64,000 nucleotides of DNA from Actinotalea endophytica (GTDB taxonomy: Bacteria > Actinomycetota > Actinomycetes > Actinomycetales > Cellulomonadaceae): contig NZ_JAOVZU010000001.1 of the NCBI RefSeq assembly GCF_025717005.1, forward strand, positions 124,001 to 188,000, written 5' to 3'. Numbering within the stretch: position 1 is the stretch's first letter; every line of letters begins with the position of its first letter. Below, one piece after another: positions 2,697 to 60,912 of the stretch. A program made the translations under genes and the position numbers. The notes below the pieces were generated by a model that saw only the letters and a list, made by a program, of their open reading frames with translations, made no database searches and was not told the DNA's origin.

Positions 2697-3731
2697 GTGA
2701 GGCTTCGGCTTGTGGACATCGCTGCCCGCGCAGGCGTCAGCGAGGCGACTGTGTCGCGCGTGCTCAACGACAAGGCGGTCGCCGAGGCGACCCGTGACAG
2801 GGTCCTCACCGCGATCGACCAGCTCGGCTACGAGCGCCCGGCCCGGTTGCGCCGCAAGACCACGGGCCTGGTCGGCCTCGTGGTCCCGGAGCTGACCAAC
2901 CCGGTCTTCCCGCTGTTCGCCCAGACCATCGAGACCGCGCTCGCGAAGCACGGGTACACGCCGGTGCTGTGCACCCAGACCCCGGGTGGCCTGCACGAGG
3001 ACGAGTACGTCGCGATGCTGCTCGAGCAGGGCACCGCCGGGATCATCTTCGTCTCCGGCATCCACGCGATCTCCGAGGCCGACATCGCCCGCTACGAGCG
3101 GCTGACCGCGAACGGGGTCGCGATCGTCCTGATCAACGGGCACCAGCCGAAGGTCGACGCACCGAGCCTGTCCCAGGACGACCGGATGGCCGTGCAGCTC
3201 GGCCTGGGCCACCTGCGCCAGCTCGGCCACACCAGGATCGGACTCGCGGTCGGCCCGTCCCGCTATACGCCCGCGAGCCGGCGGATCGCAGCCTTCGAGC
3301 AGACGATCGCCGCGCACAAGGAGATCGTCGGCGTCAGCGAGCACACCCAGTACAGCGTCGAGGGCGGCACCGCCGCGGCGCACGCGCTGCTCGACGAGGG
3401 CGTGACCGGGATCCTGTGCGGCTCGGACGTGATGGCGCTCGGCGCCATCCGCGCCGCACGCCAGCGCGGGCTGCGCGTCCCCGAGGACGTGTCGGTCATC
3501 GGCTCGGACGACGGGATGCTCGCGCAGTTCGCCGACCCGCCGCTGACCACGGTTCGTCAGGACGTGGCCGGCATGTCCGCGGCCGCGGTGCGGTTCCTGC
3601 TCGAGGAGATCGCCAAGACCCCGTCGCCCCGGCGCGAGCAGCTCTTCGCACCCGAGCTCGTGGTGCGGCGCTCGACGGCGCCGGCGGCGTCGCTGCGGGC
3701 CGCGGTGTCCCAGCTGCGCGCCGAGGTCTGA
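2697..3731 (+). CDS. malR: LacI-family transcriptional regulator, probable maltose repressor MalR
   Basis: 344-residue LacI/GalR regulator. The N-terminal helix-turn-helix reads [18 protein letters not shown] (residues about 6-23), followed by a hinge helix and a periplasmic-binding-protein-like effector domain (about 60-330) with the usual [12 protein letters not shown] and DDGMLAQF-type segments. GTG 2697 is chosen because it starts the protein right before the HTH; a longer frame upstream would add unrelated sequence. A TACGAT -10-like hexamer ends 8 bases before this GTG and there is no ribosome-binding site, so a leaderless message is likely. It is divergent from malEF and shares the operator region, so it is expected to repress malEF and perhaps itself until maltose or a derivative binds. 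Confidence 0.85.
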
Positions 3732-3789
3732 GCGCGGGATCGACACCTGACGTTCACAGCGTCGCCGTCCATCTGACGCATCCGGCTGC

Positions 3790-3795
3790 GACAAT
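3790..3795 (+). promoter_or_regulatory. Probable leaderless -10 (GACAAT) of mgsA
   Basis: GACAAT ends 7 bases before the ATG at 3803 and is preceded by TGC (extended -10-like). No Shine-Dalgarno is present, so transcription probably starts at the ATG itself. Confidence 0.45.
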
Positions 3796-3802
3796 TCATC
3801 CC

Positions 3803-4264
3803 ATGACTACGACCACGACCCGCCACGTGGCCCTCGTCGCGCACGACAACATGAAGGTCGAGCTGCTGCGCTGGGCCGAGCACAACCGCACCACGTTGTC
3901 CGCCCACCACCTGTACGCGACGGGCACCACCGGCACGATGCTCACCTACGAGCTCGGCCTGCCTGTGCACCGCTTCCTGTCCGGGCCGATCGGTGGCGAC
4001 CAGCAGATCGGCGCGAAGATCGCCGAAGGGGTCATCGACCTGCTGATCTTCTTCTGGGACCCGCTCGAGGCCCAGCCGCACGACCCGGACGTCAAGGCCC
4101 TGCTGCGCCTGTCGACGGTGTGGAACGTACCGACCGCGACCAACCTCGCGACCGCCGACTTCCTGATCTCCTCGCCGCTGCTCTCCGACTACCAGCGTCG
4201 CGTGCCGGACCTCGGTCCTAGGGGTTGGGACGGCACCCAGCCGACGGTCGCTGCCAACGGGTGA
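3803..4264 (+). CDS. mgsA: Methylglyoxal synthase
   Basis: Cytoplasmic enzyme that converts dihydroxyacetone phosphate to methylglyoxal and phosphate, an overflow bypass of lower glycolysis. 153 residues, the normal family length. The N-terminal [10 protein letters not shown] motif carries the conserved His, Asp and Lys. [10 protein letters not shown] and [15 protein letters not shown] carry the phosphate-binding and catalytic Asp/His residues, and [14 protein letters not shown] matches the C-terminal family block. It is a single gene downstream of malR. Placing it by a sugar-uptake locus makes sense, as it relieves sugar-phosphate stress, but it has its own promoter-like hexamer, so I do not call an operon. 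Confidence 0.93.
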
Positions 4265-4402
4265 ATCTCGCCCCGGACGGGTCGTAATCCTCTTGTCCGG
4301 GCCGTCCACATCGCGAGACGCTTGGGGTGTACCGGCCACCGCACACCCCGTGGAGACCGGCTGACCGCGCCACCACCCCGGCGCCCGAAGGAGAGCACCA
4401 GC

Positions 4403-4552
4403 ATGAGTGCGCGTCGCCACATCGCTCGCCGTTCCCACCGTCGTCCGACCCGAAACGCGACCACGGCAGCGCAGCGCAGGCGCCAGGCTCCCCTCCGGGC
4501 GGACTGGTCGACCGCGGTGCTGCAGGCGACCCGGGGCTCGTTGCCCTGGTGA
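4403..4552 (+). CDS. Small arginine-rich protein of unknown function
   Basis: 49-residue reading frame beginning MSARRHIARRSHRR and ending TRGSLPW. AAGGAG lies 11 bases before the ATG. It is strongly basic (about one third Arg/His/Lys in the first 30 residues), has no membrane segment, and I recognise no family. It stands alone between mgsA and a convergent acetyltransferase gene. It may be a real small nucleic-acid-binding protein, or a chance frame; the ribosome-binding site is the only support. Confidence 0.35.
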   Translation: MSARRHIARRSHRRPTRNATTAAQRRRQAPLRADWSTAVLQATRGSLPW

Positions 4553-4609
4553 GCCGTCCGGCCGGGGTCCGGTCGGGTCGGTAGGTCGGCCGAGGGTCCA
4601 GCCGTCAGG

Positions 4610-5116
4610 TCAGCCGTCGGCCAGCGCCCGCAGCGCGTCACCCGCGAGTCGCTGCGTCGTCCACTCGTCCATGCCGACCGCTCCCACCGAGCGGTAGAAC
4701 GCGATGGCCGGCGAGTTCCAGTCGAGCACCGCCCACTCGAACCGGGCGTAGCCGCGCGCCACGCACACCCGGGCGAGCTCGGTCAGCAGCGCGCGACCGT
4801 AGCCGCTGCCGCGCTCCTCCTCGAGCACCACGAGGTCCTCGAGGTACAGGCCGTGCCGCCCGGTCCAGGTCGAGTAGTTGACGAACCACACGGCGATCGC
4901 CACCACCTGCCCACGCTTGACCACGACGTGCGCGTGGACCCGCGGGTCGGGTCCGAACAGGGCCTCGACGAGGTCGGCCTCGGTGGTCCGCACCGCGTCC
5001 GGCTCCCGCTCGTAGCGGGCGAGCGCGTGGATGCACGCGAGGATCCCGGGTACGTCGCCCGGCTCGGCGAGCCGCAGCTCGGCGCCGTCGGCGAGGGCGG
5101 TCGGCAGGTCGCTCAT
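4610..5116 (-). CDS. GNAT family N-acetyltransferase (diamine acetyltransferase-like)
   Basis: 168-residue acetyl-CoA-dependent N-acetyltransferase. The central strand YLEDLVVLEEERGSGYGRALL contains the motif A acetyl-CoA pyrophosphate loop (R-G-x-G-x-G/A type), and WAVLDWNSPAIAFYRSVGA is the C-terminal motif B. The sequence around FVNYSTWTGRHGLYLEDL resembles spermidine/diamine and thialysine acetyltransferases, so a polyamine-like substrate is possible but not proven. ATG 5116 is chosen over one 8 codons upstream because TATCGT, a -10-like hexamer, ends 7 bases before it. It is transcribed away from the MFS gene that starts at 5239, with only about 120 bases between their starts. Confidence 0.8.
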   Translation of the reverse strand: MSDLPTALADGAELRLAEPGDVPGILACIHALARYEREPDAVRTTEADLVEALFGPDPRVHAHVVVKRGQVVAIAVWFVNYSTWTGRHGLYLEDLVVLEEERGSGYGRALLTELARVCVARGYARFEWAVLDWNSPAIAFYRSVGAVGMDEWTTQRLAGDALRALADG

Positions 5117-5238
5117 CGCGGTGACGATAGTGCCCGGCACCCGGGGCGCGGCGCCGTGGACCAGGCTGCGGACCGGGCCCGCCCCGAGGAGGGTGACCAG
5201 GGGCGGGACGGCCCGCCGGGCCGGGCTAGCATCGCGCG

Positions 5239-6528
5239 GTGAGCCGTCTCCTCGACCTTCTCTGGCCGGCTCGGCTGGGACGGTCGTTCCGGTGGCTGGT
5301 CGCCTCCTCGTGGGTGTCCAACCTCGGCGACGGCATCGCGCTCGCGGCCGGTCCGCTGCTGGTCGCCTCGCTGACCGACTCGGCGTTCCTGGTCGCGCTG
5401 GCGGCGACCCTGCAGTGGTTGCCGCCGATGCTGTTCGGCCTCTTCGCGGGGGCGATCACCGACCGGGTGGACCGGCGCCTGCTCGTGGTCGTCGTGGACG
5501 GTGCCCGGGTGCTCGCGCTCGTGGCGCTCGCCGCGACGATCCTCTCCGGCCACGTCAGCATCGCCCTCGTCCTCGGCGTCCTGTTCGTGCTGGGCACCGC
5601 GGAGGTCTTCGCCGACAACGCCTCGGCGACGCTGCTCCCCATGCTCGTCGCCCGGCGCGACCTCGCCGTGGGCAACCAGCGGATCCAGACCGGCCTGCTC
5701 ACGCTCAACCAGCTCGCCGGTCCGCCGCTGGGCGCGGCGCTGTTCGCCGTCGGCTGGGCGCTCCCGTTCGGCACCCAGGCGGCGCTCACCGCGCTTGCGG
5801 TGGGTCTGGTCGCGAAGGTCGTGCTGCCGCCCCACGGTCGCGACCCGGCCACGCAGCGGCACATCGGCCGGGAGATCGCCGAGGGCTTCCGCTGGACCGT
5901 GCGGCACGCCGCGGTGCGCACCCTCGTCCTGACGATCTTCACGTTCAACATCACCTTCGGCGCCGCGTGGTCGGTGCTCGTGCTCTACGCGACCGAGCAC
6001 CTCGGGCTGGGCGAGGTCGGGTTCGGCCTGATCACCACGGTGAGCGCGCTGGGCGGCCTGCTCGGGACCGCGTCCTACGGCTGGCTGACCCGGCACCTCG
6101 CGCTCGGCGACATCATGCGGATCGGCCTGATCATCGAGACCCTGACGCACCTCGGCCTCGCGCTGACCCGGAGCCCCTGGGTCGCGATGCCGATCTTCTT
6201 CGTGTTCGGCGCGCACGCGTTCGTGTGGGGCACCACGTCGACCACGGTGCGGCAGCGGGCCGTGCCCACCCGGCTGCAGGGGCGGGTCGGGTCCGTGTAC
6301 ATGGTCGGTGTCACCGGCGGGCTCGTGGTCGGGTCACTGGTCGGCGGAGCCCTCGCGCAACGGTGGGGCGTGACCGCGCCGTTCTGGTTCGCGTTCGCCG
6401 GGTCCGCGGTCTTCGTGGTGCTCATCTGGCGCGAGCTGCGGCACATCGCGCACGACGACGAGTCGGACAGCGAGCCGGACACCGATCCGCACACCGACCC
6501 GGACGGCACGGACGCCGCCCGATCCTGA
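5239..6528 (+). CDS. MFS transporter (probable drug/metabolite exporter)
   Basis: 429-residue integral membrane protein with about 12 hydrophobic helices. The N-terminal half has SWVSNLGDGIALAAGPLLVASLTDS and FAGAITDRVDRRLLVVVVDG, the loop 2-3 signature of the MFS_3/enterobactin-exporter-like group (D-R-x-x-R-R). The C-terminus is an acidic cytoplasmic tail rich in Asp and Glu. GTG 5239 is used; TAGCAT ends 7 bases before it, giving a likely leaderless message. Substrate unknown. It is a single gene followed 76 bases later by corA, which seems to have its own promoter. Confidence 0.8.
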   Translation: MSRLLDLLWPARLGRSFRWLVASSWVSNLGDGIALAAGPLLVASLTDSAFLVALAATLQWLPPMLFGLFAGAITDRVDRRLLVVVVDGARVLALVALAATILSGHVSIALVLGVLFVLGTAEVFADNASATLLPMLVARRDLAVGNQRIQTGLLTLNQLAGPPLGAALFAVGWALPFGTQAALTALAVGLVAKVVLPPHGRDPATQRHIGREIAEGFRWTVRHAAVRTLVLTIFTFNITFGAAWSVLVLYATEHLGLGEVGFGLITTVSALGGLLGTASYGWLTRHLALGDIMRIGLIIETLTHLGLALTRSPWVAMPIFFVFGAHAFVWGTTSTTVRQRAVPTRLQGRVGSVYMVGVTGGLVVGSLVGGALAQRWGVTAPFWFAFAGSAVFVVLIWRELRHIAHDDESDSEPDTDPHTDPDGTDAARS

Positions 6529-8463: not shown

Positions 8464-9360
8464 GTGCGGGCGTTCACTGCCGAGCCGGGCTACACCGACG
8501 ACTTCTTCCTGGTGCGGGAGTTCCTCGTCCGCATCAACGCCGACCGGGTGCGAACCCCCGGGTTCCTCTGGGCGCGCTGGGAGTGGGCGTTCACGCTGCC
8601 GTTCCTCGACACCTCGGCACTGGACCGGATCGGCATCTGGCAGCGCGACGGCCTGGTGGTCGGTCTCGTCACCTTCGAGGAAGGCCCGGGCGACGCCTGG
8701 CTGGTGGTCGACCCCGGTCACCGCGACCTGCTGCCTGCGATGGTCGACCACGCCGTGCGGAGCCTCGCGGTCGACGGACGGGTCCGCGTGATGGTCCCGG
8801 ACGACGACCCCGGGCTGGCCGAGATCGTCGCGTCCCGAGGCCTCGTGCGCACCGCGGGTGGCGAACCGAACGCCGTCCTGGAGCTCGACGCGGACCTCGA
8901 GTACTCGCTGCCGGACGGGCTCGGCGTGCAGAGTCTCGCGGAGGACTGGGACCTGCGGGCGTTCCACCGCCTGCTGCACCGCGGCTTCGACCACCCCGGC
9001 GAGCCGGACTGGGCGCCGTCCGAGCTGGCCTGGCGGCAGGCCTCCACGTCGTCGCCCGGTCAGCGGCCGGACCTCCAGGTGATCACCCGCACGGTGGACG
9101 GGGCGTACACCGCGTTCTGCGGCGCGTGGCTCCGGCCCGGGGCCGACTACGCCCTGATCGAGCCGGTCTGCACCGACCCGGCCTGGCGCCGCCGGGGCTG
9201 CGGACGGGCCGCGGTCCTCGAGGCGGCGCGCCGGTGCCGCGACCTCGGCGCCCGGCACGCGTACGTCGGCTCAGGTCAGGAGTTCTACCGTCGTCTCGGC
9301 TTCACCCCCGCGCTCGGTGGGACCTGGTGGAGCACCGAGACGACCCTCGCGGACGAGTGA
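8464..9360 (+). CDS. GNAT family N-acetyltransferase, two-domain
   Basis: 298-residue protein with two GNAT folds. The first half is degenerate, with no clear acetyl-CoA loop. The second half carries a good motif A at EPVCTDPAWRRRGCGRAAVLEAARR (R-R-x-G-C-G-R-A) and motif B at YVGSGQEFYRRLGF. Such tandem GNATs are common in actinobacteria and usually have one active site in the C-terminal half. Substrate unknown. GTG 8464 starts the protein right after a leaderless-type promoter. The stop is 7 bases before the HD protein gene at 9368, so the two are probably cotranscribed. Confidence 0.8.
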   Translation: MRAFTAEPGYTDDFFLVREFLVRINADRVRTPGFLWARWEWAFTLPFLDTSALDRIGIWQRDGLVVGLVTFEEGPGDAWLVVDPGHRDLLPAMVDHAVRSLAVDGRVRVMVPDDDPGLAEIVASRGLVRTAGGEPNAVLELDADLEYSLPDGLGVQSLAEDWDLRAFHRLLHRGFDHPGEPDWAPSELAWRQASTSSPGQRPDLQVITRTVDGAYTAFCGAWLRPGADYALIEPVCTDPAWRRRGCGRAAVLEAARRCRDLGARHAYVGSGQEFYRRLGFTPALGGTWWSTETTLADE

Positions 9361-49574: not shown

Positions 49575-52500
49575 TCAGCCGACCTGGACCTCGTTCAGCT
49601 CCACGCGGTTGCGGCCGTCGGCGGACTGCGGCAGAGCGGTGAACCAGAGCACGATCGACTGCGTCTGGACCGGCTCGTCGAACGTGAACGTCGTGGTGCC
49701 GGAGAGCGGGCCGGATGCCAGGACCTCGCCCTCGGTCGGCTTGTCCGCCGTGGTGGCCCGGATCTCGACGTTCCCACCCGACTCGGACGTCACGATGACC
49801 ACCTTCGTCACCGTCGACTCCTGCTGGAGCTGGACGGCGAAGCCGATCCCGGCCTTCATGCCGTAGGTCGGCGACACGTAGGTCCGCGAGACCCACATGG
49901 TGTCCGGGTTCCCGTCGATGGCCTGGTCGACGAGCTCAGGGTGCTCGTTGTTGTCGCCGTTCGGCGGCGGGTCGACCTGCTGGGCGGAGGCGATCACGGG
50001 CGGGACCGTCGTCGGTGCGCTCGTGGCGGTGTCGGTGGGCTCGCTCGGGGAGTCGCTCGGCTCGGCAGAGGCCGACCCGGTCTCGGACGGCTGCAGCGGG
50101 GTCGCGAGACCTGCGGTGCCGTCCTCGCTGCCGAACAGGTCCGTCAGTCCCGGTGCGGGGCTCGTGAGGGCGTTCCACGCCCAGAACACGCCGAACAGCA
50201 GGGCGGCGACCACGAGCACGATCACCACCGGTGTCGCGTTGAACCTCTTGCGGACCAGGAGGTCCGCGGTGTGGCCGACGATCTCGTCGAAGCCGTGCTG
50301 CTCGGTCTCGTGGGCTGTGCCGGGGGCACCGGGCACCGGCGGCGGCGAGCCCGCTGTGCCGCCCCGGCCGCCGGCAGACGGTGCGGGCGTGTCGTCCGAG
50401 GTGCGCGAGGACTGGCGAACGGGGACCGACTCGTCGACCGGCGCTGGGAGCCACGACGCCGTGGAGGGAGGCTCCGGCGCGGCGGACGGGGCCGGGACGG
50501 TGACCGCGCCCGCGGCCGAGGCAGCCGCGGCGACCCGCGGGTCGGGCCGCCGGACCGCGGGCGGGATGGCCGGCGGCGGTGTGCCGGGCCGGTGCGGGAC
50601 GGCCGGCTCCTTGCCGTACGCGGTCGAGCGGACCGGGGTGATGGCTTCGGCGTCCGCGACCTCGGGGACCTGCGCGGCCGCGGCCGCGACCTCCGCCTCG
50701 TCCAGCTCGACGGTGCCCTCGGCGGGGCTGCTGACGTCGGGCGAGGCGGCCTCGTCGGACGTGTCGTCGGGGGCCTCCGCGACGGGCGTGCCCTCGTCCT
50801 CCGTGGCGTCCTGGTCGGTTGGGCTGCTCTCGTCCGCGGTGGCGTCGTCGTCCGCGGGAATCTCGACGCCCGAGTCCTCGGCCGTCGGCTCCTCGGCCGT
50901 GGGCTCCTCGGACATGGTGTCATCGGACGTGGTGTCATCGGCGCGGGCCAGGTCAGTCGTGGGCTCCGCGTTGGCCGCGGGCGAGGCCTCGTCGACCTCG
51001 CTGCGGCCCTCCGCCTCGCCCGCAGCGGCCAGAGCCGCGGTGGCCGCAACGCCCGCAGCCGCTGCCGCCGCGCCCCCGGGTTCGTGCACGGGCGGGTTCA
51101 CCGCGCCGCGGACCGGTTCGACGGTCGTGATCCGGCCCCACGGCTCGAGCTCACGAACCAGCTCTGCCGGGCTGTGCGGACCGTCGTCGTGCGGGCCCAG
51201 AGTCACCGCGCACAGCGTGTCGAGGTCGTTCGGCACGCCCGGGACGAACTCGGCGGGCGGCACGGGCCGGCCGGAGAGCAGCGGGGCCGGCTGGACGCCG
51301 TGGGTCGTCACGCCGGTGGGCGACGGCCAGCGGCCGGTCAGGGCGAGGTAGAGGAGCGAGACCAGGCCGACCGTGTCGGCGCGCGTCGTCGACCGGGCGT
51401 CGCCCAGGCCGTGCTCGCTCAGCTCACCGTCGAGGGCGAGCCCCGAGACGACGACCCCGCCGGACGGGGTGATGTGGACCGCCGACGGGCGCAGCGCGAG
51501 GTGGTGGACGCCGCGGCGCCGGGCGATCTCCAGGGCCACCGCGGCCTCGCCGATGACGGCGCGCGCCTGGTCGGGCGGGAGGGCCCCGTGTGCCGTGAGC
51601 TCGCCCAGGTCGCGGCCCGGGATCCGCTCGGTCACCACGTAGGCCAGACCTTCGTGGTCACCCACGTCGAGCACGCGCAGCAGGCGCGGGTCGGACACCA
51701 GGGCGGCTCGACGTGCAGCGTCCTTGGCCTGGGTGACGCGGCCCTCGTGCAGGAGCAGCGCGCGGACCGGGCGATCGAGGATCTGGTCCCGCGCGGTCCA
51801 GGCCTCCGCGCCGGGCAGGTCGCACGGCGCGGGGTGGTCCAGGCGGTATCGACCGGACAGCAGCGTGCCCTGGCCGATGCTGACGTCCACCGCCACCCCC
51901 ATGCTGTCGTCCCGGCCCGCGGTCAGGGCACCCATGCTACGGCGCAGCCGGGAGACGACTGGCGCTGCGATCTGGGCGAGCTCGCCGACGCCGAGCAGGT
52001 GGAGCACGAACGCGTACACCGCGGTCATCACGACACCGACCAGCAGGCACACCACGACCGAGGTCATGAACCCCGCGCGGGACAGGTCGCCGAACTGCTG
52101 GCTGAGCGGCCAGCCGAGCACGACCGCGGCGACCATGCCGGCGAGCGATGCCAGCGCGACGCGCGCCGACCCTCGGTTGACCATCTCGCCGACCCGGCGC
52201 CGGACCGCGAACCCGCCCCATACCGCCCCGAGGACGTAGGAGGTCGCGATCGCCGCTCCGGCGCCGATCGTCCAGGCGGACCGCGGCAGCGTGTACCGGC
52301 CCGCCACGGTGACGAGGACGACCACGGCCGCCATCACGACCTGGATCCGGAAGAGGCCGCGCGCGTCCTCGTAGGCGTAGTGCACCCGCTGTGCGAGCGA
52401 CCAGATGCCCAGCGCCGGGAGGCCAGCCACCAGCGCCACGATGATCGGCGCGAGGGACGCCGACTCCTCGGGTGTGTTGCCGGGGGCGACCAGCCGAGCG

Positions 52501-53561
52501 ATCGGCAGGGCCAACACCGCCACGACGGCAGCCGCGAGGATCGTGAACACCGTGATGAGCCTCGCGCCCGTGTCGACGTCCCGCCGTACCCCCGACGTGT
52601 CCCCGGCTGCCGCGTGCCCTGACATCCGGGTGAAGAGCGCGGTGAGCAACGACACGGTGACCAGCGAGTGCGGCAGCATGAAGACCAGGAACGCGTAGCC
52701 GTACGCGTTGTTGCCGGCGATCGTCAGGTCGCCCGGGATCGGCGCGCTGTTGGTCACCCTGGTCACCACCAGCACGCCGAGCTGGCCCGCGAGCAGGGCG
52801 GCGAAGGTCCACCCGGCCACGCGGCCCGCGGTGGACAGCCCGGCGCCCCGCCAGTCGCGCCGCGGACGGAACCGGAAACCGATCCGGTGCAGCGGCCAGA
52901 TCAGCACCAGGGCCTGCGTGACGATGCCGAGCGTCGCCGATCCGGCGATGAGCAGGACCGGTCCGATGGTCCATGCGGCGGGGTCCTCGAGCGAGCCGCT
53001 GGCCAGGTCGCGGCCGAACAGCACGATGAACGCGCTGAACCCCAGGATCGACACCACGTTGTTCACGACCGGTGCCCACATGTAGGGGCCGAAGCTGCCC
53101 CTGGCGTTGAGCACCTGCCCGAGCAGCGTGTAGAGCCCGTAGAAGAAGACCTGGGGGATGCACCACCAGGCGAACACTGTCGCCAGGTGCACCGCTGCGG
53201 GGTCGTTCGAGCCGCCGACGACCCGGATGATGAGCGGCGTCAGGGCCGTGGCGAGCAACGTGATGGCCCCGAGGATCGCGATCGAGACCGTCAGCAGCCG
53301 GTCGGCGTACTCCTGCCCGCGCCCGCTGCGGTAGGCGCGGACGATCTGTGGCACCAGCACGGCGTTCACGACGCCGCCGGCGACCAGCATGTAGATGATG
53401 TTCGGCAGGGTGTTCGCGAGGTTGAACTGGTTCGCGACGATCGTGTTGAGGCCGATCGCGGCGGCGAGGACGGCGTTGCGGACCAGTCCGAGCACGCGTG
53501 ACACGGCTGTCCCGGTCGCCATCACCGTGGTCGAACGGCCCAACCCCGACCCCGTGCTCAC
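49575..53561 (-). CDS. murJ: Lipid II flippase MurJ fused to a pseudokinase domain and external C-terminal domain
   Basis: 1328 residues. The N-terminal part (about 1-530) is MurJ (MviN) with about 14 helices ([31 protein letters not shown]) and flips lipid II outward. A cytoplasmic kinase-like domain (about 555-800) follows, but the HRD becomes HLALRPS, no DFG is seen and the VAIK Lys is missing, so it is a pseudokinase. A long acidic/Pro/Ala linker (about 820-1110) leads to a helix near 1132-1152 ([21 protein letters not shown]) and an external beta-rich domain of about 130 residues. The layout is that of mycobacterial MviN, whose phosphorylated pseudokinase binds FhaA. GTG 53561 overlaps the DUF6049 stop by 4 bases. 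Confidence 0.93.
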
Positions 53562-55726
53562 GTCCCTGCCCCCTCGGCCCCCTCTGCGCCGCCTGTGGTC
53601 GCGGCCGTCGCGGCCCGTGCGGCACGACCTCGGCCCCGGCCGCGGCGGATGGTGCGCACCAACCCGGTCACGAGGCCGAGCGCCAGGACACCGAAGATGA
53701 TTGCTGTACCGATGCTCTCCCACTCGGCGCGGACGCGCACCGTCAGGGTCGTGGAGTCGTTGACCAGCACGCCGTCCGGGGTGAGCAGCTGGACCGTGAC
53801 GGCGACGTTGCCGCTCTGCACGCCGTGCACGGGGATCTGCACGGTCATGGTGGACTCGGCCGGCACCAGGACCTCGACGGTCTCACGAGCCACCAGCCGT
53901 GCGTCCGAGGGTTGCAGCCGCACGCCGAGGGTCACGTCCTGGTCCAGCGCGTTGGCGACCTGGAGCGGCAGCTCGCCCGAGCTGGACAGCAGGTTCACGT
54001 CGGACGTCTCCGGCACGGTCACGGCGTCCCGCAGCTCGGCCGTCCGCGTCATGGACGCGTTCACCAGCGTCGTGCGCCCGGCCGGGTCTTCGCGCCAGGC
54101 GAGGGCAGCGGGTGCGAGCCGCTCGGCGTCCAGGTCGCCCAGCAGCTCCTCGGGGTGGCTCGCCATGGTGGAGAGCGCCTCGCGCTCGTTGACCGCGTCG
54201 TCGACGGCTCCCAGCGTGACGGCCGAGACCTCCGCGTCGGACGAGATCGTCGCGGGCAAGGTGCCGCGCTCGATGTCGCTCGCTGCGGAGGCGAGTCCGT
54301 TCAGGTCGGCGATCGCGACGAACGGTGCCTCCTCGAGCGCGCTGAGCTCGGCGCGGACGACCTCGACGTCCGGATCCCAGTCGCGCGGCACGCTGAGCAG
54401 CATGTGCCGGGGGTCGGCGGGCCGCTCTCGGGTGATCACCGCCAGCTCGGCGAGCAGGTCGGCCGCCGCGGTCGCACCGGTCGGGGCTGCGTCGTTGCCG
54501 GCCGTCCCGGTACCGAGCACCGTGCCCGTGGTCAACGCCGAGGAGAGTCGGGCGTCCGGGACCAGGACCACGGCGTCACCGGCGGCCGTCGCGACGGTGG
54601 TCTGCCCCGACGGCGTGTAGGTCAGCACCGAGGGCGCAGGGAGCTCGCCCGGGCCGACCACCAGGGGGCGGCCCTCGCCGGCCGCCCACGCCGCCACCGT
54701 GAGGTCGGGCAGAGACTCGGCCGGCAGCACGAGCTCGGTGGTCGGCTCCAGGCCGAGCTCGGACACGCGGCTCGCCGAGCGCTGCTCGGCGAGGGTGAGC
54801 AGGCTCTCGGCGCCGTCGTGCACGAGGGCGGTGACGTCGGCGTCGCCCCACGGCAGCGTCACCACACCCTGGTCCGCCGACGCGGTGGCCAGCGACCGGG
54901 CCCAGGACGCGGGCCCGGGGCCCGTCGACGACTCGGCGTCGGAGTCGAGGGCCGTGCTCAGCAACCAGGGGTCGACCGCCCAGGTCACGGCCGGCGAGTC
55001 CGTCGCGGCGAGCAGGTCACCGAGACGCCCGCCGGGCGAGGTGAGCCTGGAGACCTGCCGAGCGGCGTCCTCGCCCGGCGCGGGCCCGGTGACGGGGACG
55101 ATCACGCTCACCGAGGTGTGCTGGTCGTTCTGCACGGGGTACCAGACGATGAAGGTTCGGGCCACGCCCTGACGGAGCCGGGTGGCGTCCGCGACGTCCA
55201 CGAGCTCGAGACCGAGTCCCCGGGCGCCCCACGACCAGCTGTTCGACGGAAGGGCGATGCTCGACGCCGGCACGGTCAGGGTCACGGTGCGGGACTGCCC
55301 GGCGGCCAGCGGCTGGTCGAGGTCCTGGGTGAGCACCGTGGCACCGAGGGACTCGTACGGCCCGGCGTCGCGCCACAGGTCGAGCGAGCTGCGGCTGACG
55401 AACCCGGACCGGTTCAGGTGCACCAGGACCCTCGGCTGGGCGAGGTCGGTGCTTCCGGCGTTGGTGAGCTTCACCGTGATCGTCAGGTCGGTGCGGGGCG
55501 TCAGCACGGTGGGCGAGAGGTCGGTGATCGAGACCTGCACGGTGGGCGACGTCTCCGTGCGGAGCACGTTCGGGATCCCGCTCGACGCGGCGTTCGACGC
55601 GACCGCGCCCGTGACCCCGTCAGGGATGCCGACGGCGCCCGCTGCGACCGCGGACGCCGGCAGGAGCAGGGCGGCGAGCACGGCGGTGACGGCACCCAGC
55701 CGCGCGCGGGATCGAGGCCGGCTCAC
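53558..55726 (-). CDS. DUF6049 family secreted/membrane-anchored protein
   Basis: 722 residues. A cleavable-looking signal peptide (about 1-28, AVTAVLAALLLPASAVAAG), a large extracytoplasmic region with Ig-like beta segments near the N-terminus (VQVSITDLSPTVLTPRTDLT) and near the C-terminus (TLTVRVRAEW), and a final helix (about 678-700) with a basic tail. The family almost always lies between the Nudix gene and murJ in actinobacteria and is assumed to act in the envelope; no activity is known. It overlaps both neighbours by 4 bases, so it is coupled to murJ. Confidence 0.85.
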   Translation of the reverse strand: MSRPRSRARLGAVTAVLAALLLPASAVAAGAVGIPDGVTGAVASNAASSGIPNVLRTETSPTVQVSITDLSPTVLTPRTDLTITVKLTNAGSTDLAQPRVLVHLNRSGFVSRSSLDLWRDAGPYESLGATVLTQDLDQPLAAGQSRTVTLTVPASSIALPSNSWSWGARGLGLELVDVADATRLRQGVARTFIVWYPVQNDQHTSVSVIVPVTGPAPGEDAARQVSRLTSPGGRLGDLLAATDSPAVTWAVDPWLLSTALDSDAESSTGPGPASWARSLATASADQGVVTLPWGDADVTALVHDGAESLLTLAEQRSASRVSELGLEPTTELVLPAESLPDLTVAAWAAGEGRPLVVGPGELPAPSVLTYTPSGQTTVATAAGDAVVLVPDARLSSALTTGTVLGTGTAGNDAAPTGATAAADLLAELAVITRERPADPRHMLLSVPRDWDPDVEVVRAELSALEEAPFVAIADLNGLASAASDIERGTLPATISSDAEVSAVTLGAVDDAVNEREALSTMASHPEELLGDLDAERLAPAALAWREDPAGRTTLVNASMTRTAELRDAVTVPETSDVNLLSSSGELPLQVANALDQDVTLGVRLQPSDARLVARETVEVLVPAESTMTVQIPVHGVQSGNVAVTVQLLTPDGVLVNDSTTLTVRVRAEWESIGTAIIFGVLALGLVTGLVRTIRRGRGRGRAARAATAATTGGAEGAEGAGT

Positions 55727-56253
55727 GTCTCGTCGGCGAGTGCAGCCCGCGCCGCGTCGGCGAGCCGACGCTCGTTCGGGTAGGACAGGCGGGCGTGCAG
55801 GTCCTCGAGCGCGACCCAGGCCACGTCCTCGGCCTCGCCGTCGGGGTCCCCGGCCACGGTGAGCTCGCCGCCCACCGCCTCGAGCAGGAAGTGGTGGACC
55901 ACCTTGTGCACCCGGCGGTCCTCGCCGGTGAACCAGTAGTCGATCGAGCCGAGCGCCTTCCGGACGATTCCGGTGATGCCGGTCTCCTCGGCGATCTCCC
56001 GGACCGCAGCCTCGGCGGGGGTCTCGGTGCCCTCGAGATGCCCCTTGGGCAGGCACCACTCGAGGCGTCCGGCACGGTTGCGGCGCGCGATCACGGCGGC
56101 GCGCAGCTCGGCATCGACCACCAGGCCGCCGGCCGACGTCTCCTCGACCACGGGGAGTCGGGAGGCCCGGACCACGGTGCGCCGTTCGATGCGCAGCCGG
56201 TGCCCGCCGGGCGGCGGGGGGACCCGGTCGCCGGGAACGGCTGCGTGTGACAT
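55723..56253 (-). CDS. Nudix hydrolase
   Basis: 176-residue Mg-dependent pyrophosphohydrolase. The Nudix box is complete: GHLEGTETPAEAAVREIAEETGI matches G-x5-E-x7-REUxEExGU, with the metal-binding Glu residues. YWFTGEDRRVHKVVHHFLLE resembles members acting on diadenosine polyphosphates or 8-oxo-dGTP, so the substrate is uncertain. ATG 56253 is favoured because TACAGT ends 6 bases upstream (leaderless type). It leads the Nudix-DUF6049-murJ unit and is divergent from pcnA by 71 bases. Confidence 0.9.
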   Translation of the reverse strand: MSHAAVPGDRVPPPPGGHRLRIERRTVVRASRLPVVEETSAGGLVVDAELRAAVIARRNRAGRLEWCLPKGHLEGTETPAEAAVREIAEETGITGIVRKALGSIDYWFTGEDRRVHKVVHHFLLEAVGGELTVAGDPDGEAEDVAWVALEDLHARLSYPNERRLADAARAALADET

Positions 56254-56324
56254 GTCGCCACTGTAACGATCCCGGTCGTGCCGGACCGCGTCGCCCGGCC
56301 GGGGTTCTGGCACGCTGGTGTGCC

Positions 56325-57812
56325 GTGCCAGCCACTACGCCCTCACCCGAGCTCCTCGCGCTGCAGCGACGCGCCGCAGCCGTGCTCGCCTCGCTGCCCG
56401 CCGAGGCGCTCGAGCTGGGAGCCGCGTTCCGGGCCGCGGGCCACGAGCTGGCCCTGGTCGGTGGCCCGGTCCGGGACGCGTTCCTGGGTCGCGCCTCGAG
56501 CGATCTCGACTTCACCACGTCGGCGACGCCGGACGAGACCCAGGAGCTGCTCGCCGCCTGGGGTGACGCGCACTGGGACATCGGCAAGGAGTTCGGGACC
56601 ATCGGCGCCCGGCGGTTCGCCGGCAAGGGCCGCGACGACGTCGTGGTCGAGGTGACCACCTACCGCACCGACGAGTACGACCCGGCGTCACGCAAGCCGC
56701 TCGTCGCGTTCGGCGACACCCTCGAGGGCGACCTGTCCCGCCGGGACTTCACCGTCAACGCGCTCGCGGTACGGCTGCCGTCACTGGAGTTCGTCGACCC
56801 GTTCGACGGCCTGAGCGACCTCGCCGCGCGGGTGCTGCGCACGCCGATCGCACCGGAGCGCTCGTTCGACGACGACCCGCTGCGGATGATGCGCGCGGCC
56901 CGGTTCGTGTCCCAGCTCGGGGCCCGGCTGCACCCGGACGTCGCCGAGGCGATCAGCGCCATGGCCCAGCGGATCGAGATCGTCTCGGCCGAGCGGGTGC
57001 GCGACGAGCTGGTCAAGCTGCTGCTCACCGACAACCCGCGGCCGGGCCTGGAGGTCCTGGTCGACTCCGGGCTGGCCGACCACGTGCTGCCGGAGCTCAC
57101 GGCGCTGCAGCTCGAGATCGACGAGCACCACCGCCACAAGGACGTCTACCAGCACTCGCTCACCGTCCTCGCGCAGGCGATCGCGCTGGAGACCGGGACG
57201 CAGGCCGAGCCCACCGGGCCGGTGCCCGGGCCGGACCTCCAGCTGCGGCTCGCTGCGCTGCTGCACGACATCGGCAAGCCGGCCACGCGGCGTTTCGAGC
57301 CCGGTGGCGGGGTGAGCTTCCACCACCACGAGGTGGTCGGGGCGAAGCTCGTCGCGAAGCGGCTCAAGGCGCTGCGGTTCGACAAGGAGACGGTGCAGGC
57401 GGTGGCCAAGCTCACCGAGCTGCACCTGAGGTTCCACGGGTACGGCGAGCAGGCCTGGACCGACTCGGCGGTCCGCCGCTACGTCACGGACGCCGGGCCG
57501 CTGCTCGAGCGCCTGCACCGGCTGACCCGCTCGGACTGCACGACGCGGAACAAGCGCAAGGCCGACCGGCTGTCGTTCGCCTACGACGACCTGGAGCACC
57601 GGATCGGCGTGCTGCGCGAGAAGGAGGAGCTCGCCGCGGTCCGCCCGGACCTGGACGGGCAGCAGATCATGGCGATCCTGGGGATCGGACCGGGCCCGGT
57701 GATCGGTGAGGCCTACCGCTTCCTGCTCGACCTGCGGATGGAGCACGGGCCGCAGGACCCGGCCGAGGCCGAGCGCGCACTGCGCGAGTGGTGGGCGGCC
57801 CGGGAGGGCTGA
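56325..57812 (+). CDS. pcnA: CCA-adding tRNA nucleotidyltransferase / poly(A) polymerase family
   Basis: 495 residues. Adds CCA to tRNA 3' ends; all three tRNAs in this window lack encoded CCA, so this activity is needed. The class II nucleotidyltransferase head has ALVGGPVRDAFLG, SDLDFTTSATP and the RRDFTVNALAV block. RMMRAARF is the nucleotide-selecting motif, and a C-terminal HD domain has LLHDIGKPATRRF and FHHHEVVGAK. GTG 56325 is chosen because it starts just before the conserved region; a frame upstream from 56247 would overlap the divergent Nudix gene. Confidence 0.94.
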   Translation: MPATTPSPELLALQRRAAAVLASLPAEALELGAAFRAAGHELALVGGPVRDAFLGRASSDLDFTTSATPDETQELLAAWGDAHWDIGKEFGTIGARRFAGKGRDDVVVEVTTYRTDEYDPASRKPLVAFGDTLEGDLSRRDFTVNALAVRLPSLEFVDPFDGLSDLAARVLRTPIAPERSFDDDPLRMMRAARFVSQLGARLHPDVAEAISAMAQRIEIVSAERVRDELVKLLLTDNPRPGLEVLVDSGLADHVLPELTALQLEIDEHHRHKDVYQHSLTVLAQAIALETGTQAEPTGPVPGPDLQLRLAALLHDIGKPATRRFEPGGGVSFHHHEVVGAKLVAKRLKALRFDKETVQAVAKLTELHLRFHGYGEQAWTDSAVRRYVTDAGPLLERLHRLTRSDCTTRNKRKADRLSFAYDDLEHRIGVLREKEELAAVRPDLDGQQIMAILGIGPGPVIGEAYRFLLDLRMEHGPQDPAEAERALREWWAAREG

Positions 57813-57891: not shown

Positions 57892-59616
57892 TCAGGGCTG
57901 CGGGTCGGCGGGGCGCCGGACCACGAGCAGGCACACGTCGTCGTGCAGGTCCGGGCCGAGCAAGGTTCCGACCAGCAGGTCGCGCGCCTCGGCGGCGGAC
58001 GCCGTCACCGGGACCCGCGCGAGGGTCTCGCGGAGCGCCTCGAGGCCCTCCCGCAGACCGCGGTCACGGCGCTCGACCAGCCCGTCGGAGTAGGCGACGA
58101 GGGTCGCGCCCGGCGGCAGCTCCGCGGTCGCCACAGGGGTGACGTCGTCGATGGCCGGCACCCCGACCGGGGTGCGCAGTGCGCCGTCCAGCGCTCGAAC
58201 CGATCCGTCGGGCATCAGCACCATGGGTGGCGGGTGACCCGCGCGGGAGTACTCGAGGCGGCCGTCCCGCAGTCGCAGGTAGGTGCACGTCGCGATGTCG
58301 GCCATGCCGAGGCCGCGCACCAGCTCGTCCAGGTGCTCCACGACGTGGTTCGCGGGTGCGCCGCTCCACGCGTAGGAGCGCAGCACCGAGCGGAGCTGCC
58401 CCATCGCGGCGGCCGCGCCGAGGTCGTGCCCCACGACGTCGCCCACGGCGAGCCCGATCGCGCCGTCCGGCAGCGTCATGACGTCGAACCAGTCGCCACC
58501 GACCTCGGCGGGGCGCTGGGCGGGCAGGTAGGTCGCGGCGACGTCGAGGCCCTCGACCTCGGGCACCTCGGGCAGCATCCGTCGTTGCAGGGTCAGCGCG
58601 GCGGCCCGCTCCCGCTCGTAGAGGCGCACGTTGTCCAGGCCGAGCCCGGCCCGGTGGGCGACGTGCTCGGTGGTGACGACGTGCCTGCGCGGGAAGGTTC
58701 CCTCGGCGAGCACGAGCACGATCACGCCGATCACGCGGTTGCGGGCCCGCAGGGGCACGACGAGCGCGGTGCCGACCCCGAGTCGCCGGAGCAGGGCGAG
58801 CTGCTCGGGTGTGGTGCGCTCGGGCAGGCCGGCCGCGTCGATCCGGAACGGCTCGGGCCACGCGTCGCTCTCCCCGGTGAGCGCGGCCCGGACCGACGGT
58901 GACCTGGTCAGCCAGGACAGGTCGAGCGCCTGGAGGGCGGCGGCGTCCGGGAGGTCTCGGGAGTCGGCGACCGCGACGTGCAGCCGGTCGACCCGGCCAC
59001 GGTCGTCGACCGTGGCGACGTAGCCCCAGTCCGAGAACTCGCGGACCAGGATCTCCGCGAGAGTGCGGACCGCGGCGTCGTACTCGAGGTTGCGGGCCAG
59101 CCCCTCGGTCACCCGCGCGAGGAGCTGCAGGCGCGCGCGGTCGTCGGTCGCGGCCTCGAGCTCGGCCTCCCGGCGGCGCTGCGCCTCGATCCGGTCGGTC
59201 ACGTCGGCCTGGATCCCGACGTGGTGGGTGACCCTGCCGTCGTCGTCGAGGACCGGCGAGATCACCAGCTGGTTCCAGAACGGGGTGCCGTCGGCGCGGT
59301 AGTTGATCAGCGTCTCGGCGACGGTGCGTCCTTCCCGGAGGCCCGCTCGGATCCGGTCGACCGCGGCGGGGTCGGTCTCCGGCCCCTGGAGGAACCGGCA
59401 GTTGCGGCCGAGCACCGCGCTCGCCGAGTAGCCGGTGACCTTCTCGAACGCCGGGTTGACCCAGACGAGCGGGTCGTCGGGCAGCGTCGGGTCGGAGATC
59501 GTGAACGAGAGGTCGCTGGCCGTCGCGGCCCTCGCGTGCAGGTCCGCGCCGAGGGCGGCCGCGAGGTCGGCGGGCACGGGCCCGCCAGGGGCCTCGTCCC
59601 GCTCGGTCTCGGTCAC
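57892..59616 (-). CDS. LOV-GAF-PP2C (SpoIIE-type) blue-light-responsive phosphatase
   Basis: 574 residues. An N-terminal LOV domain (about 35-142) has the photoactive GRNCRFLQG with Cys73, plus the flavin-contacting Asn105 and Asn115 (INYRADGTPFWN) and Gln136 (HVGIQADVT); all the residues needed for the flavin-cysteinyl photocycle are present. A GAF domain (about 165-345) and a SpoIIE/PP2C phosphatase (about 365-570) follow, with GGDWFDVMTL, VGDVVGHDLGAAAAM and DDVCLLVVR. PP2C enzymes of this type act on anti-anti-sigma factors, so blue light probably feeds into a sigma-factor partner switch. No such partner is encoded nearby. GTG 59616 follows TAGGCT by 6 bases. Confidence 0.9.
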   Translation of the reverse strand: MTETERDEAPGGPVPADLAAALGADLHARAATASDLSFTISDPTLPDDPLVWVNPAFEKVTGYSASAVLGRNCRFLQGPETDPAAVDRIRAGLREGRTVAETLINYRADGTPFWNQLVISPVLDDDGRVTHHVGIQADVTDRIEAQRRREAELEAATDDRARLQLLARVTEGLARNLEYDAAVRTLAEILVREFSDWGYVATVDDRGRVDRLHVAVADSRDLPDAAALQALDLSWLTRSPSVRAALTGESDAWPEPFRIDAAGLPERTTPEQLALLRRLGVGTALVVPLRARNRVIGVIVLVLAEGTFPRRHVVTTEHVAHRAGLGLDNVRLYERERAAALTLQRRMLPEVPEVEGLDVAATYLPAQRPAEVGGDWFDVMTLPDGAIGLAVGDVVGHDLGAAAAMGQLRSVLRSYAWSGAPANHVVEHLDELVRGLGMADIATCTYLRLRDGRLEYSRAGHPPPMVLMPDGSVRALDGALRTPVGVPAIDDVTPVATAELPPGATLVAYSDGLVERRDRGLREGLEALRETLARVPVTASAAEARDLLVGTLLGPDLHDDVCLLVVRRPADPQP

Positions 59617-59622
59617 GCCGCG

Positions 59623-59628
59623 AGCCTA
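59623..59628 (-). promoter_or_regulatory. Leaderless -10 (TAGGCT) of the LOV phosphatase gene, overlapping the MFS stop codon
   Basis: TAGGCT ends 6 bases before GTG 59616, and its TAG (59628-59626) is also the stop codon of the upstream MFS gene. No ribosome-binding site precedes the GTG, so a separate leaderless transcript is likely. Confidence 0.5.
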
Positions 59629-60912
59629 GGTGGCCGGGACCGGTCGAGACGAGACCGTGCGGTAGACCAGCGCGGTGACCAGGTAGAGGACGGCGAGGCC
59701 GAGGAACGTCGCCGGCGACTCCCCGGTGTCCGGCAGCGCCACCGCGCCGAGGGCCGCCGCCCCCACGAACGCGGCGTTGTAGAGCATGTCGTACAGCGCG
59801 AAGGCCCGGCCGCGGAACTCGTCGTCGGTGTCCCGCTGGACGATCGTGTCCACCGCGATCTTGGCGCCCTGTGCGGTGAGGCCCAGCAGCCCTGCGCTCG
59901 CGAGCACGGTGACGCGGCTGACACCGGCGAGCAGGACGAGCTGGCCGATCGCGCCGGTGGCGAGGCACACCACGATCCAGGTCCGCGGCAGCATCCGCTG
60001 CGTGGCGAACGGGGTGAGGACCACGGCGAGCGCGAAGCCGGCACCCGAGACGGCGAGCACCGTCGCGAACATGGTGAGGCCGGCGTCGGTGTCCGCCGGG
60101 TCCGAGAGCACGTTCCGGGACAGCAGGATGCTCGCGATGAGCATCGCGCCGTAGATGAAGCGGTGCACCGCCATGACGCCCAGAGCGGCGGCCGGGGTGC
60201 GCCGGGCGACCAGGTGGCGCACACCCTCCGCGAGGCCGTGGACCAGGTGGCTCAGCTCGCGCCGCAGCTCGGCGGCGTCCGCGCGGTGCGTGGGACCGAG
60301 CTCGTCCGGGCCGAGCCGCAGCGCCAGCGCCGACGCGGCGGCGAACAGCAGTGCCGCGCCGATCAGCACGACCGCGTCGTGCGCGGGTCCGGCCGGCGTG
60401 AGCAGACCGGCGACGAAGCCCGCGCCAGCCCCCACCCCGGCGGCCACCGCGCCGAACGTCGGGCTGATCGTGTTGGCGATCAGCAGCTCGTCCGGCGGGA
60501 CCACCCGGGGCAGGCCGGCTGACAGCGCGGAGAGCAGGAAGCGGTTCACGCCGAGGGTCACGAGGCTGAGCACGTAGACGGCCGGTCCCACGCCGACCGT
60601 GACCATCAGCGTCGCGAGGACCAGGGTTAGCACGACCCGGATCGCGTTGCCGACCATCAGCACCTGGCGCCGGCGCCAGCGGTCGAGAAGCACGCCGGCC
60701 CACGGCCCGACCAGCGTGAACGGCAGCAGCAGCACGGCGAACGCGGCCGCGACGTCGGCGGCCGTCGCGAGGCGTTCGGGGTTGAAGAAGAACAGTGTCG
60801 CGAGGCCGACCTGGAACGCACCGTCACCGGTCTGCGACACCAGGCGCACCGTGAACAGCTTGCGGAAGCCCGCGTGCACCGCGACGCCCCGCAGGTCGGA
60901 CCACACGCTCAC
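59626..60912 (-). CDS. MFS transporter
   Basis: 428 residues with about 12 helices. LFTVRLVSQTGDGAFQVGLATLFFF and GPWAGVLLDRWRRRQVLMVGN show the MFS loop signature (D-R-x-x-R-R). The second half contains DTIVQRDTDDEFRGRAFALYD, a block common in MFS_1 transporters of actinobacteria. Substrate unknown. GTG 60912 is chosen from where homology begins (VSVWSDLRGVAVHAGFRKLF); GTG 60906 is a near alternative. It lies 9 bases upstream of the LOV phosphatase gene, on the same strand. Confidence 0.82.
   Translation of the reverse strand: MSVWSDLRGVAVHAGFRKLFTVRLVSQTGDGAFQVGLATLFFFNPERLATAADVAAAFAVLLLPFTLVGPWAGVLLDRWRRRQVLMVGNAIRVVLTLVLATLMVTVGVGPAVYVLSLVTLGVNRFLLSALSAGLPRVVPPDELLIANTISPTFGAVAAGVGAGAGFVAGLLTPAGPAHDAVVLIGAALLFAAASALALRLGPDELGPTHRADAAELRRELSHLVHGLAEGVRHLVARRTPAAALGVMAVHRFIYGAMLIASILLSRNVLSDPADTDAGLTMFATVLAVSGAGFALAVVLTPFATQRMLPRTWIVVCLATGAIGQLVLLAGVSRVTVLASAGLLGLTAQGAKIAVDTIVQRDTDDEFRGRAFALYDMLYNAAFVGAAALGAVALPDTGESPATFLGLAVLYLVTALVYRTVSSRPVPAT

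What the first reader, a model, noticed from the sequence alone, without database searches (positions are those of the whole stretch)
57892..59616. LOV-GAF-PP2C photoreceptor phosphatase without a nearby partner
The N-terminal PAS region keeps every residue needed for the LOV photocycle (Cys73, Asn105, Asn115, Gln136) and is fused to GAF and a SpoIIE-type PP2C domain. This predicts blue-light control of an anti-anti-sigma factor, a general-stress switch driven by light. No RsbV/RsbW-like or sigma factor gene is present, so its target is unknown.
Basis: partly seen in the sequence, partly recalled or inferred. Interest (0 to 1): 0.72.

Follow-up and report, generated by a model that had tools for sequence, protein, structure and literature searches.

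The report
Blue-light-sensing phosphatase near replication origin
An actinobacterium related to Actinotalea and Cellulomonas carries a gene for a protein that looks built to sense blue light and strip phosphate from a regulatory partner; it is a real, conserved member of a known kind, whose likely partners are encoded elsewhere in the genome.

Summary
Window 57892-59616(-) encodes 574 aa: LOV (Cys73, Asn105, Asn115, Gln136 present), GAF and an intact SpoIIE-type PP2C domain; AlphaFold pLDDT is 93. No STAS, HATPase_c_2 (RsbW-type) or sigma-factor match lies in the window.

It is conserved: I count orthologs in 84 of 221 same-family genomes; in 74 of 80 fetched loci it lies downstream of the same MFS gene. 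That gene is resident, not a dedicated partner. Relatives elsewhere show likely partners: Solirubrobacter has RsbW / STAS / LOV-GAF-PP2C; a Kineococcus and 4 of 6 copies away from the usual site have an RsbW-type neighbour. This favours partner switching in trans. 'General stress' is not supported: no SigB/F/G-type sigma factor over the curated cut-off in 221 genomes.

In passing: the genome's other full-length relative is a LOV-like-PP2C-RsbW fusion between two STAS genes; its photoactive Cys has become Pro.

Verdict: new member of a known kind (LOV-SpoIIE phosphatases), with an unusual sighted/blind paralog pair.

The parts
57892..59616 (-). LOV-GAF-PP2C (SpoIIE-type) photoreceptor phosphatase gene, 574 aa
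59191..59505 (-). LOV domain (residues 38-142); photoactive Cys73 codon at 59398-59400
59092..59199 (-). 36-residue helix (140-175) leaving the LOV domain towards GAF
   Evidence: predicted structure
58636..59127 (-). GAF domain (about residues 164-327)
   Evidence: Pfam GAF and GAF_2
58576..58689 (-). 38-residue helix (310-347) linking GAF to PP2C; candidate transmission linker
   Evidence: role by analogy with PMC12143880 (passages)
57913..58470 (-). SpoIIE-type PP2C phosphatase domain (residues 383-568 by Pfam; the GGD motif at 373-375 lies just before); Asp375, 393, 511, 559, 560 present
59626..60912 (-). MFS transporter gene (start chosen by comparison with relatives), stop codon 9 bp before the photoreceptor start; conserved neighbour, perhaps co-transcribed, not a dedicated partner
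56247..57812 (+). CCA tRNA nucleotidyltransferase gene, convergent neighbour (start uncertain; the name is recalled, from no call)

Best explanation
A soluble blue-light receptor phosphatase. Inferred steps: blue light forms a Cys73-flavin adduct; Gln136 and the helix that follows relay the change through GAF and the 310-347 helix; the PP2C domains, probably in a dimer, switch activity; the phosphatase removes phosphate from one or more STAS (RsbV-like) proteins encoded elsewhere in the genome, changing their hold on an RsbW-type kinase. Whether light switches it on or off is not determined. The final output is probably not a SigB/F/G-type sigma factor. Shown here: domain order, conservation of photocycle and catalytic residues, predicted fold, and RsbW/STAS neighbours in relatives.
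For: Cys73, Asn105, Asn115 and Gln136 kept in 77, 80, 80 and 73 of 80 orthologs; PP2C aspartates in 79-80 of 80, every exception being the incomplete L154. High-confidence model with two long linker helices; nearest solved fold is the RsbU-RsbW part of Rv1364c (Foldseek 1.8e-16; sequence 1.2e-25 for the PP2C part), next are LOV structures. In two Solirubrobacter genomes (L221, L222) an RsbW-type gene, a STAS gene and LOV-GAF-PP2C adjoin; in Kineococcus indalonis (L210) an RsbW-type gene is next door; of the 6 group-1 copies away from the usual site, 4 have an adjacent divergent RsbW-type gene. The own genome has short STAS and RsbW-type genes.
Against: At the usual site (74 loci) neither model finds a STAS or RsbW-type gene in the fetched flanks, and 2 of the 6 moved copies have neither, so the pairing in this genome is inference. 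No SigB/F/G-type sigma factor over cut-off. Flavin binding, photocycle and phosphatase activity cannot be assayed here. A BldG-like STAS protein is not found at E 1e-15 in 27 of 84 ortholog-bearing genomes, so it is unlikely to be a universal substrate, although it is commoner there (57 of 84) than in the rest (45 of 137).
Confidence: 0.62

Rival explanations
1. The phosphatase acts on its operon neighbour, the MFS transporter, or the two form a light-regulated transport unit.
For: The MFS gene is upstream on the same strand in 74 of 80 loci, within 61 bp in 61 of them, with a 4-base start/stop overlap in 43 of the 48 such loci of one genus code, g3; every one of 84 ortholog-bearing genomes has it, against 128 of 137 others.
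Against: It is present in 212 of 221 genomes at E 1e-50, mostly without the photoreceptor. In 18 of 18 informative loci without the photoreceptor at this site the MFS and CCA genes are still there, 13 with nothing between them. SpoIIE-type PP2C proteins are best known for STAS substrates (recalled).
Confidence: 0.08
2. The light sensor feeds the C18 cassette: it and the blind LOV-like-PP2C-RsbW paralog act on the same two STAS proteins, giving a light plus redox (or other) two-input switch.
For: The paralog is the only other match in the genome that covers LOV, GAF and PP2C (38% over 28-572), and STAS genes lie on both sides of it.
Against: The paralog group also occurs in genomes without the photoreceptor, for example G018, and nothing links the two loci physically or genetically.
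Confidence: 0.2
3. The LOV domain serves mainly as a redox or temperature sensor and light is incidental.
For: Cysteine-less LOV domains can signal by flavin reduction (PMC4682037, passages); 3 of 80 orthologs have lost the Cys.
Against: Cys73 is retained in 77 of 80 orthologs, which redox sensing alone would not need.
Confidence: 0.08

Closest known systems
Prokaryotic LOV-SpoIIE phosphatases (named as a typical class in PMC4844311; passages)
   Same: LOV sensor joined to a SpoIIE-type PP2C output
   Different: Only a mention of the class in what I read; the GAF domain, the locus and the partner context are not described in those passages
Bacillus subtilis RsbP and RsbU (PMC12143880; passages)
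   Same: N-terminal sensor, helical linker, PP2C; RsbP dephosphorylates RsbV
   Different: Sensor is LOV plus GAF, not PAS alone or the RsbU N-domain; no SigB-type factor found here
Mycobacterium tuberculosis Rv1364c (PDB 3ke6; described in a passage of PMC12143880)
   Same: Closest PP2C by sequence and fold; its PAS-PP2C-kinase-STAS chain resembles the C18 paralog
   Different: The window protein has no kinase or STAS part; the passage names its sensor PAS, not LOV
YtvA family (LOV-STAS)
   Same: LOV domain tied to an RsbV/RsbW kind of pathway (recalled); NCBIfam YtvA_fam aligns to residues 30-154
   Different: Below that family's cut-off (136.6 against 250 bits); output is PP2C, not STAS; stressosome genes were not searched for

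Membership tests
   C73, N105, N115, Q136
LOV photoreceptor domain | LOV fold | tested here: met
   model pLDDT 96-98 over blocks covering 41-150; Foldseek to LOV structures, e.g. 9vf7 with TMt 0.91-0.94
LOV photoreceptor domain | binds flavin and shows a reversible blue-light photocycle | not testable with these tools
   needs protein
SpoIIE/PP2C (PPM) serine phosphatase | complete domain with the motif aspartates (metal ligands, recalled) | tested here: met
   PF07228 141.1 bits over positions 1-191 of 192; D375, D393, D511, D559, D560
General stress response (RsbU/RsbP-type) phosphatase | helical linker between sensor and PP2C | tested here: met
   helix 310-347 in the predicted structure
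General stress response (RsbU/RsbP-type) phosphatase | SigB/F/G-type sigma factor in the genome | tested here: not met
   TIGR02980 over cut-off in 0 of 221 genomes (in 1 of 14 control genomes); best in own genome 133.1 bits, a presumed SigA, against 234.35
General stress response (RsbU/RsbP-type) phosphatase | RsbV/RsbW-type genes in the genome | tested here: met
   short STAS genes on C1, C17 and C18, HATPase_c_2 over cut-off on C17 and in the C18 fusion
General stress response (RsbU/RsbP-type) phosphatase | acts on an RsbV-type substrate | not testable with these tools
   needs an assay; neighbours in relatives only suggest it
YtvA family (NCBIfam NF052652) | score over the curated cut-off and STAS output | tested here: not met
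   136.6 bits against 250; output is PP2C

The most novel reading that the evidence does not exclude
Two paralogous LOV-derived phosphatases, one with the photoactive Cys and one that lost it (Cys to Pro) while its group keeps most flavin-contact residues, converge on one pool of STAS proteins. The cell would read light and flavin redox (or a light-independent signal) through sister sensors in one partner-switch network that has no SigB-type sigma factor at its end.
Probability: 0.2. Interest if true: 0.65.

Novelty: new member of a known kind. Interest (0 to 1): 0.45.

Why it matters
It turns a lone annotation into a testable system: a photoreceptor phosphatase conserved in 84 of 221 genomes of one family, relatives that point to the likely partner type, and a blind sister in the same genome. 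If confirmed it would show light input to partner switching in bacteria in which no classical general-stress sigma factor was found, and give a natural pair for asking what a LOV domain does after losing its cysteine.

Tried and rejected
MFS transporter as dedicated partner: put low because it is in 212 of 221 genomes and at 18 of 18 informative photoreceptor-free loci. BldG-like STAS as universal substrate: put low, not found at E 1e-15 in 27 of 84 ortholog-bearing genomes; it is nevertheless commoner there (57 of 84) than elsewhere (45 of 137; Fisher p 5e-7), which shared ancestry may explain. The C1-type STAS is found at E 1e-8 in 84 of 84 such genomes against 121 of 137 others (p 0.0007); the search also catches paralogs and the genomes are related, so this is a hint only. 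Pyrimidine-dimer glycosylase as a UV link: seen in 8 of 80 loci with the gene and 2 of 18 without it, so not specific. An RsbW like that of the moved copy L140 gave only the C18 fusion in the own genome (E 2.2e-10, searched to E 1).

Limits. The 84 genomes are my split of the list by score (E below 1e-113), typed by hand with the absences into. Of 85 such places in the 83 other genomes, 80 (from 78 genomes) were fetched; G064, G073, G095, G103 and G123 were not. Flanks are at most about 8 kb and shorter at contig ends (loci of 4.6-17.7 kb). In one search the RsbW model was seeded with L140, L146, L147, L210, the C17 gene and seven group-2 domains, the STAS model with three own-genome genes (plus the typed one), L214, L222, L164 and L172; hits independent of their own seeds include L142, L214, L218, L221, L222, L236 for RsbW and L215, L218, L221 for STAS. 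L224 and L229 match only in part and were left out of that count. The L214 HATPase_c_2 score is below Pfam's cut-off (24.5 against 27.4), and L214 has Leu at the Gln136 position. Protein starts were chosen by script. The tree is a quick one without bootstrap.

Full report
Observation. The gene at 57892-59616(-) starts with GTG and encodes 574 aa. Pfam finds PAS_9 at 44-141, GAF and GAF_2 within 164-327 and SpoIIE at 383-568. The best PDB sequence matches are LOV domains (aureochrome 5dkk, 1.1e-37); the PP2C part alone matches Rv1364c of M. tuberculosis (3ke6, 1.2e-25). A model from a 68-sequence alignment has mean pLDDT 93.1 and pTM 0.77, with long helices at 140-175 and 310-347 joining the domains. 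Foldseek ranks the RsbU-RsbW structure of Rv1364c first (1.8e-16) and LOV structures next.

Neighbourhood. The window is G000:C1:124001-188000 of a 4.25-Mb, 20-contig genome. By eye the ORFs include dnaA-, dnaN-, gyrase-, parA- and parB-like genes about 36-46 kb into the window, hence 'near the origin'; those names are recalled. The MFS gene (59626-60912, same strand) ends 9 bp upstream of the photoreceptor start; a CCA nucleotidyltransferase gene (name recalled) is convergent. Own-genome searches give 8 STAS places (7 over cut-off), 16 HATPase_c_2 places (8 over), 17 Sigma70_r2 and 3 Sigma70_r3 places, none inside the window. The nearest sigma factor is at C1:115 kb, about 9 kb outside the window, beside what look by eye like flagellin and hook-associated genes; its FliA/WhiG score is 164.4 bits, under the cut-off of 189.6. 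Another is WhiG (358.6 against 343 bits); the third I presume to be SigA.

Distribution. Of 221 genomes of the family, 215 have some match at E 0.001. Splitting the list by score I count 84 genomes with the ortholog, own included. I fetched 80 ortholog loci from 78 other genomes. The MFS gene is upstream on the same strand in 74 of 80: within 61 bp in 61, 62-371 bp in 11, over 1.5 kb in 2; 43 of the 48 in genus code g3 have a 4-base start/stop overlap. The CCA gene is convergent downstream in 72 of 80, within 150 bp in 47 and more than 1.5 kb away in 19. In 18 of 18 informative loci lacking the photoreceptor at this site, MFS and CCA genes are both present: 13 with nothing between, 2 with the glycosylase (L258, L269), 3 with other genes (L265, L273, L275). 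So the photoreceptor entered or left an older locus.

Conservation. In the 80 orthologs Cys73 is kept in 77, Asn105 in 80, Asn115 in 80, Gln136 in 73; the PP2C aspartates fail only in the incomplete L154. The three without Cys are L151 (Leu), L152 (Met) and L153 (Pro). In 23 of 80 a further 120-230 residues or so (script-chosen starts) precede the LOV domain; Pfam assigns that part nothing in L077.

Partners in relatives. The photoreceptor-free loci give 0 of 18 for both; paralog loci 18 of 21 for both; seven chosen distant relatives RsbW in 6 and STAS in 5 (several of these supplied seeds). In Solirubrobacter L222 an RsbW-type gene is divergent from a STAS gene that ends 2 bp before a LOV-GAF-PP2C gene with GRNCRFLQG. 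In Kineococcus indalonis (L210) an RsbW-type gene is convergent with a LOV-GAF-PP2C gene that has an N-terminal extension. In Kineococcus xinjiangensis (L214) a LOV-PP2C-RsbW fusion with the Cys is divergent from a STAS gene. These make an RsbV-like protein the most likely substrate class in the window's genome; that step is inference.

Not a SigB switch. TIGR02980 (SigB/F/G) reaches its cut-off in 0 of 221 genomes and in 1 of 14 controls; the own-genome best is 133.1 bits (C7, presumed SigA) against 234.35; three genomes of one other genus reach 213-221. The RsbW-type output here is therefore most likely another sigma factor or a non-sigma target.

Blind sister. The other relative covering all three domains (C18, 38% over 28-572) is 696 aa: LOV-like PAS, a middle part where Pfam calls no GAF, SpoIIE, HATPase_c_2, with STAS genes at L034:6054-6413 and 8706-9080 on its two sides. 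I examined it and 20 further loci picked: 18 of 21 are RsbW fusions, and in all 18 the Cys is replaced (16 Pro, 2 Ala) while Asn105 stays in 16, Asn115 in 17 and Gln136 in 16 of 18. The own protein keeps both Asn but has Ala aligned with the Gln. These figures are only a little above the median column of the domain (0.83), so retained flavin binding is suggested, not shown. The three non-fusions are L155 and L156 (Cys kept) and L158 (Trp). On a 68-row quick tree without the motif columns the eight sampled fusions form one clade (SH-aLRT 100) that includes two Cys-bearing proteins, from Kineococcus (L214, with Leu for the Gln) and Pseudokineococcus (L218); Cys loss needs three changes, fusion one. 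The simplest reading is loss of the Cys from a light-sensing ancestor. LOV-like domains with Pro for Cys are already known (PMC4682037, passages).

Literature. LOV-SpoIIE phosphatases are named as a typical prokaryotic class in PMC4844311 (passages). The helical-linker mechanism for PPM phosphatases is from PMC12143880 (passages). In the listings no title or abstract start reports experiments on a LOV-GAF-PP2C protein; the lists were cut to 12-25 rows and the library holds open-licence papers only, so this is weak evidence.

Verdict. A genuine, conserved photoreceptor phosphatase of a known kind.

Noticed in passing
L034:6477-8567(-), with STAS genes at 6054-6413(+) and 8706-9080(+) (own genome C18): LOV-like-PP2C-RsbW fusion with the photoactive Cys replaced by Pro, between two STAS genes; similar fusions in 17 of 20 further loci examined.
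   Followed up: partly
L214:3995-6238(+) (Kineococcus xinjiangensis): Fusion of a Cys-bearing LOV, PP2C and RsbW-type domain with a divergent STAS gene: a possibly sighted relative of the blind C18 family, though Leu replaces the conserved Gln.
   Followed up: partly
L222, about 3267-5515 (Solirubrobacter phytolaccae): Compact RsbW-type / STAS / LOV-GAF-PP2C module, a whole candidate light-driven partner switch in about 2.3 kb.
   Followed up: partly
L084:9716-10195(-) and similar loci: Pyrimidine-dimer glycosylase gene between the photoreceptor and CCA genes in 8 of 80 loci, also at 2 of 18 loci without the photoreceptor.
   Followed up: partly
L151:5881-10804(+): Two tandem LOV-like genes at the usual site, the first with Leu for the Cys, the second (988 aa) with THELLHGP where the window protein has NCRFLQGP.
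   Followed up: no
L077:7530-9650(+) and 22 other orthologs: Extra N-terminal part before the LOV domain, no Pfam match in L077, PAS-like by eye; absent in the window protein.
   Followed up: no
window 49575-56659(-): MviN-, DUF6049- and MutT-like genes (names recalled) follow the CCA gene in the same order in the relatives with enough flank.
   Followed up: no
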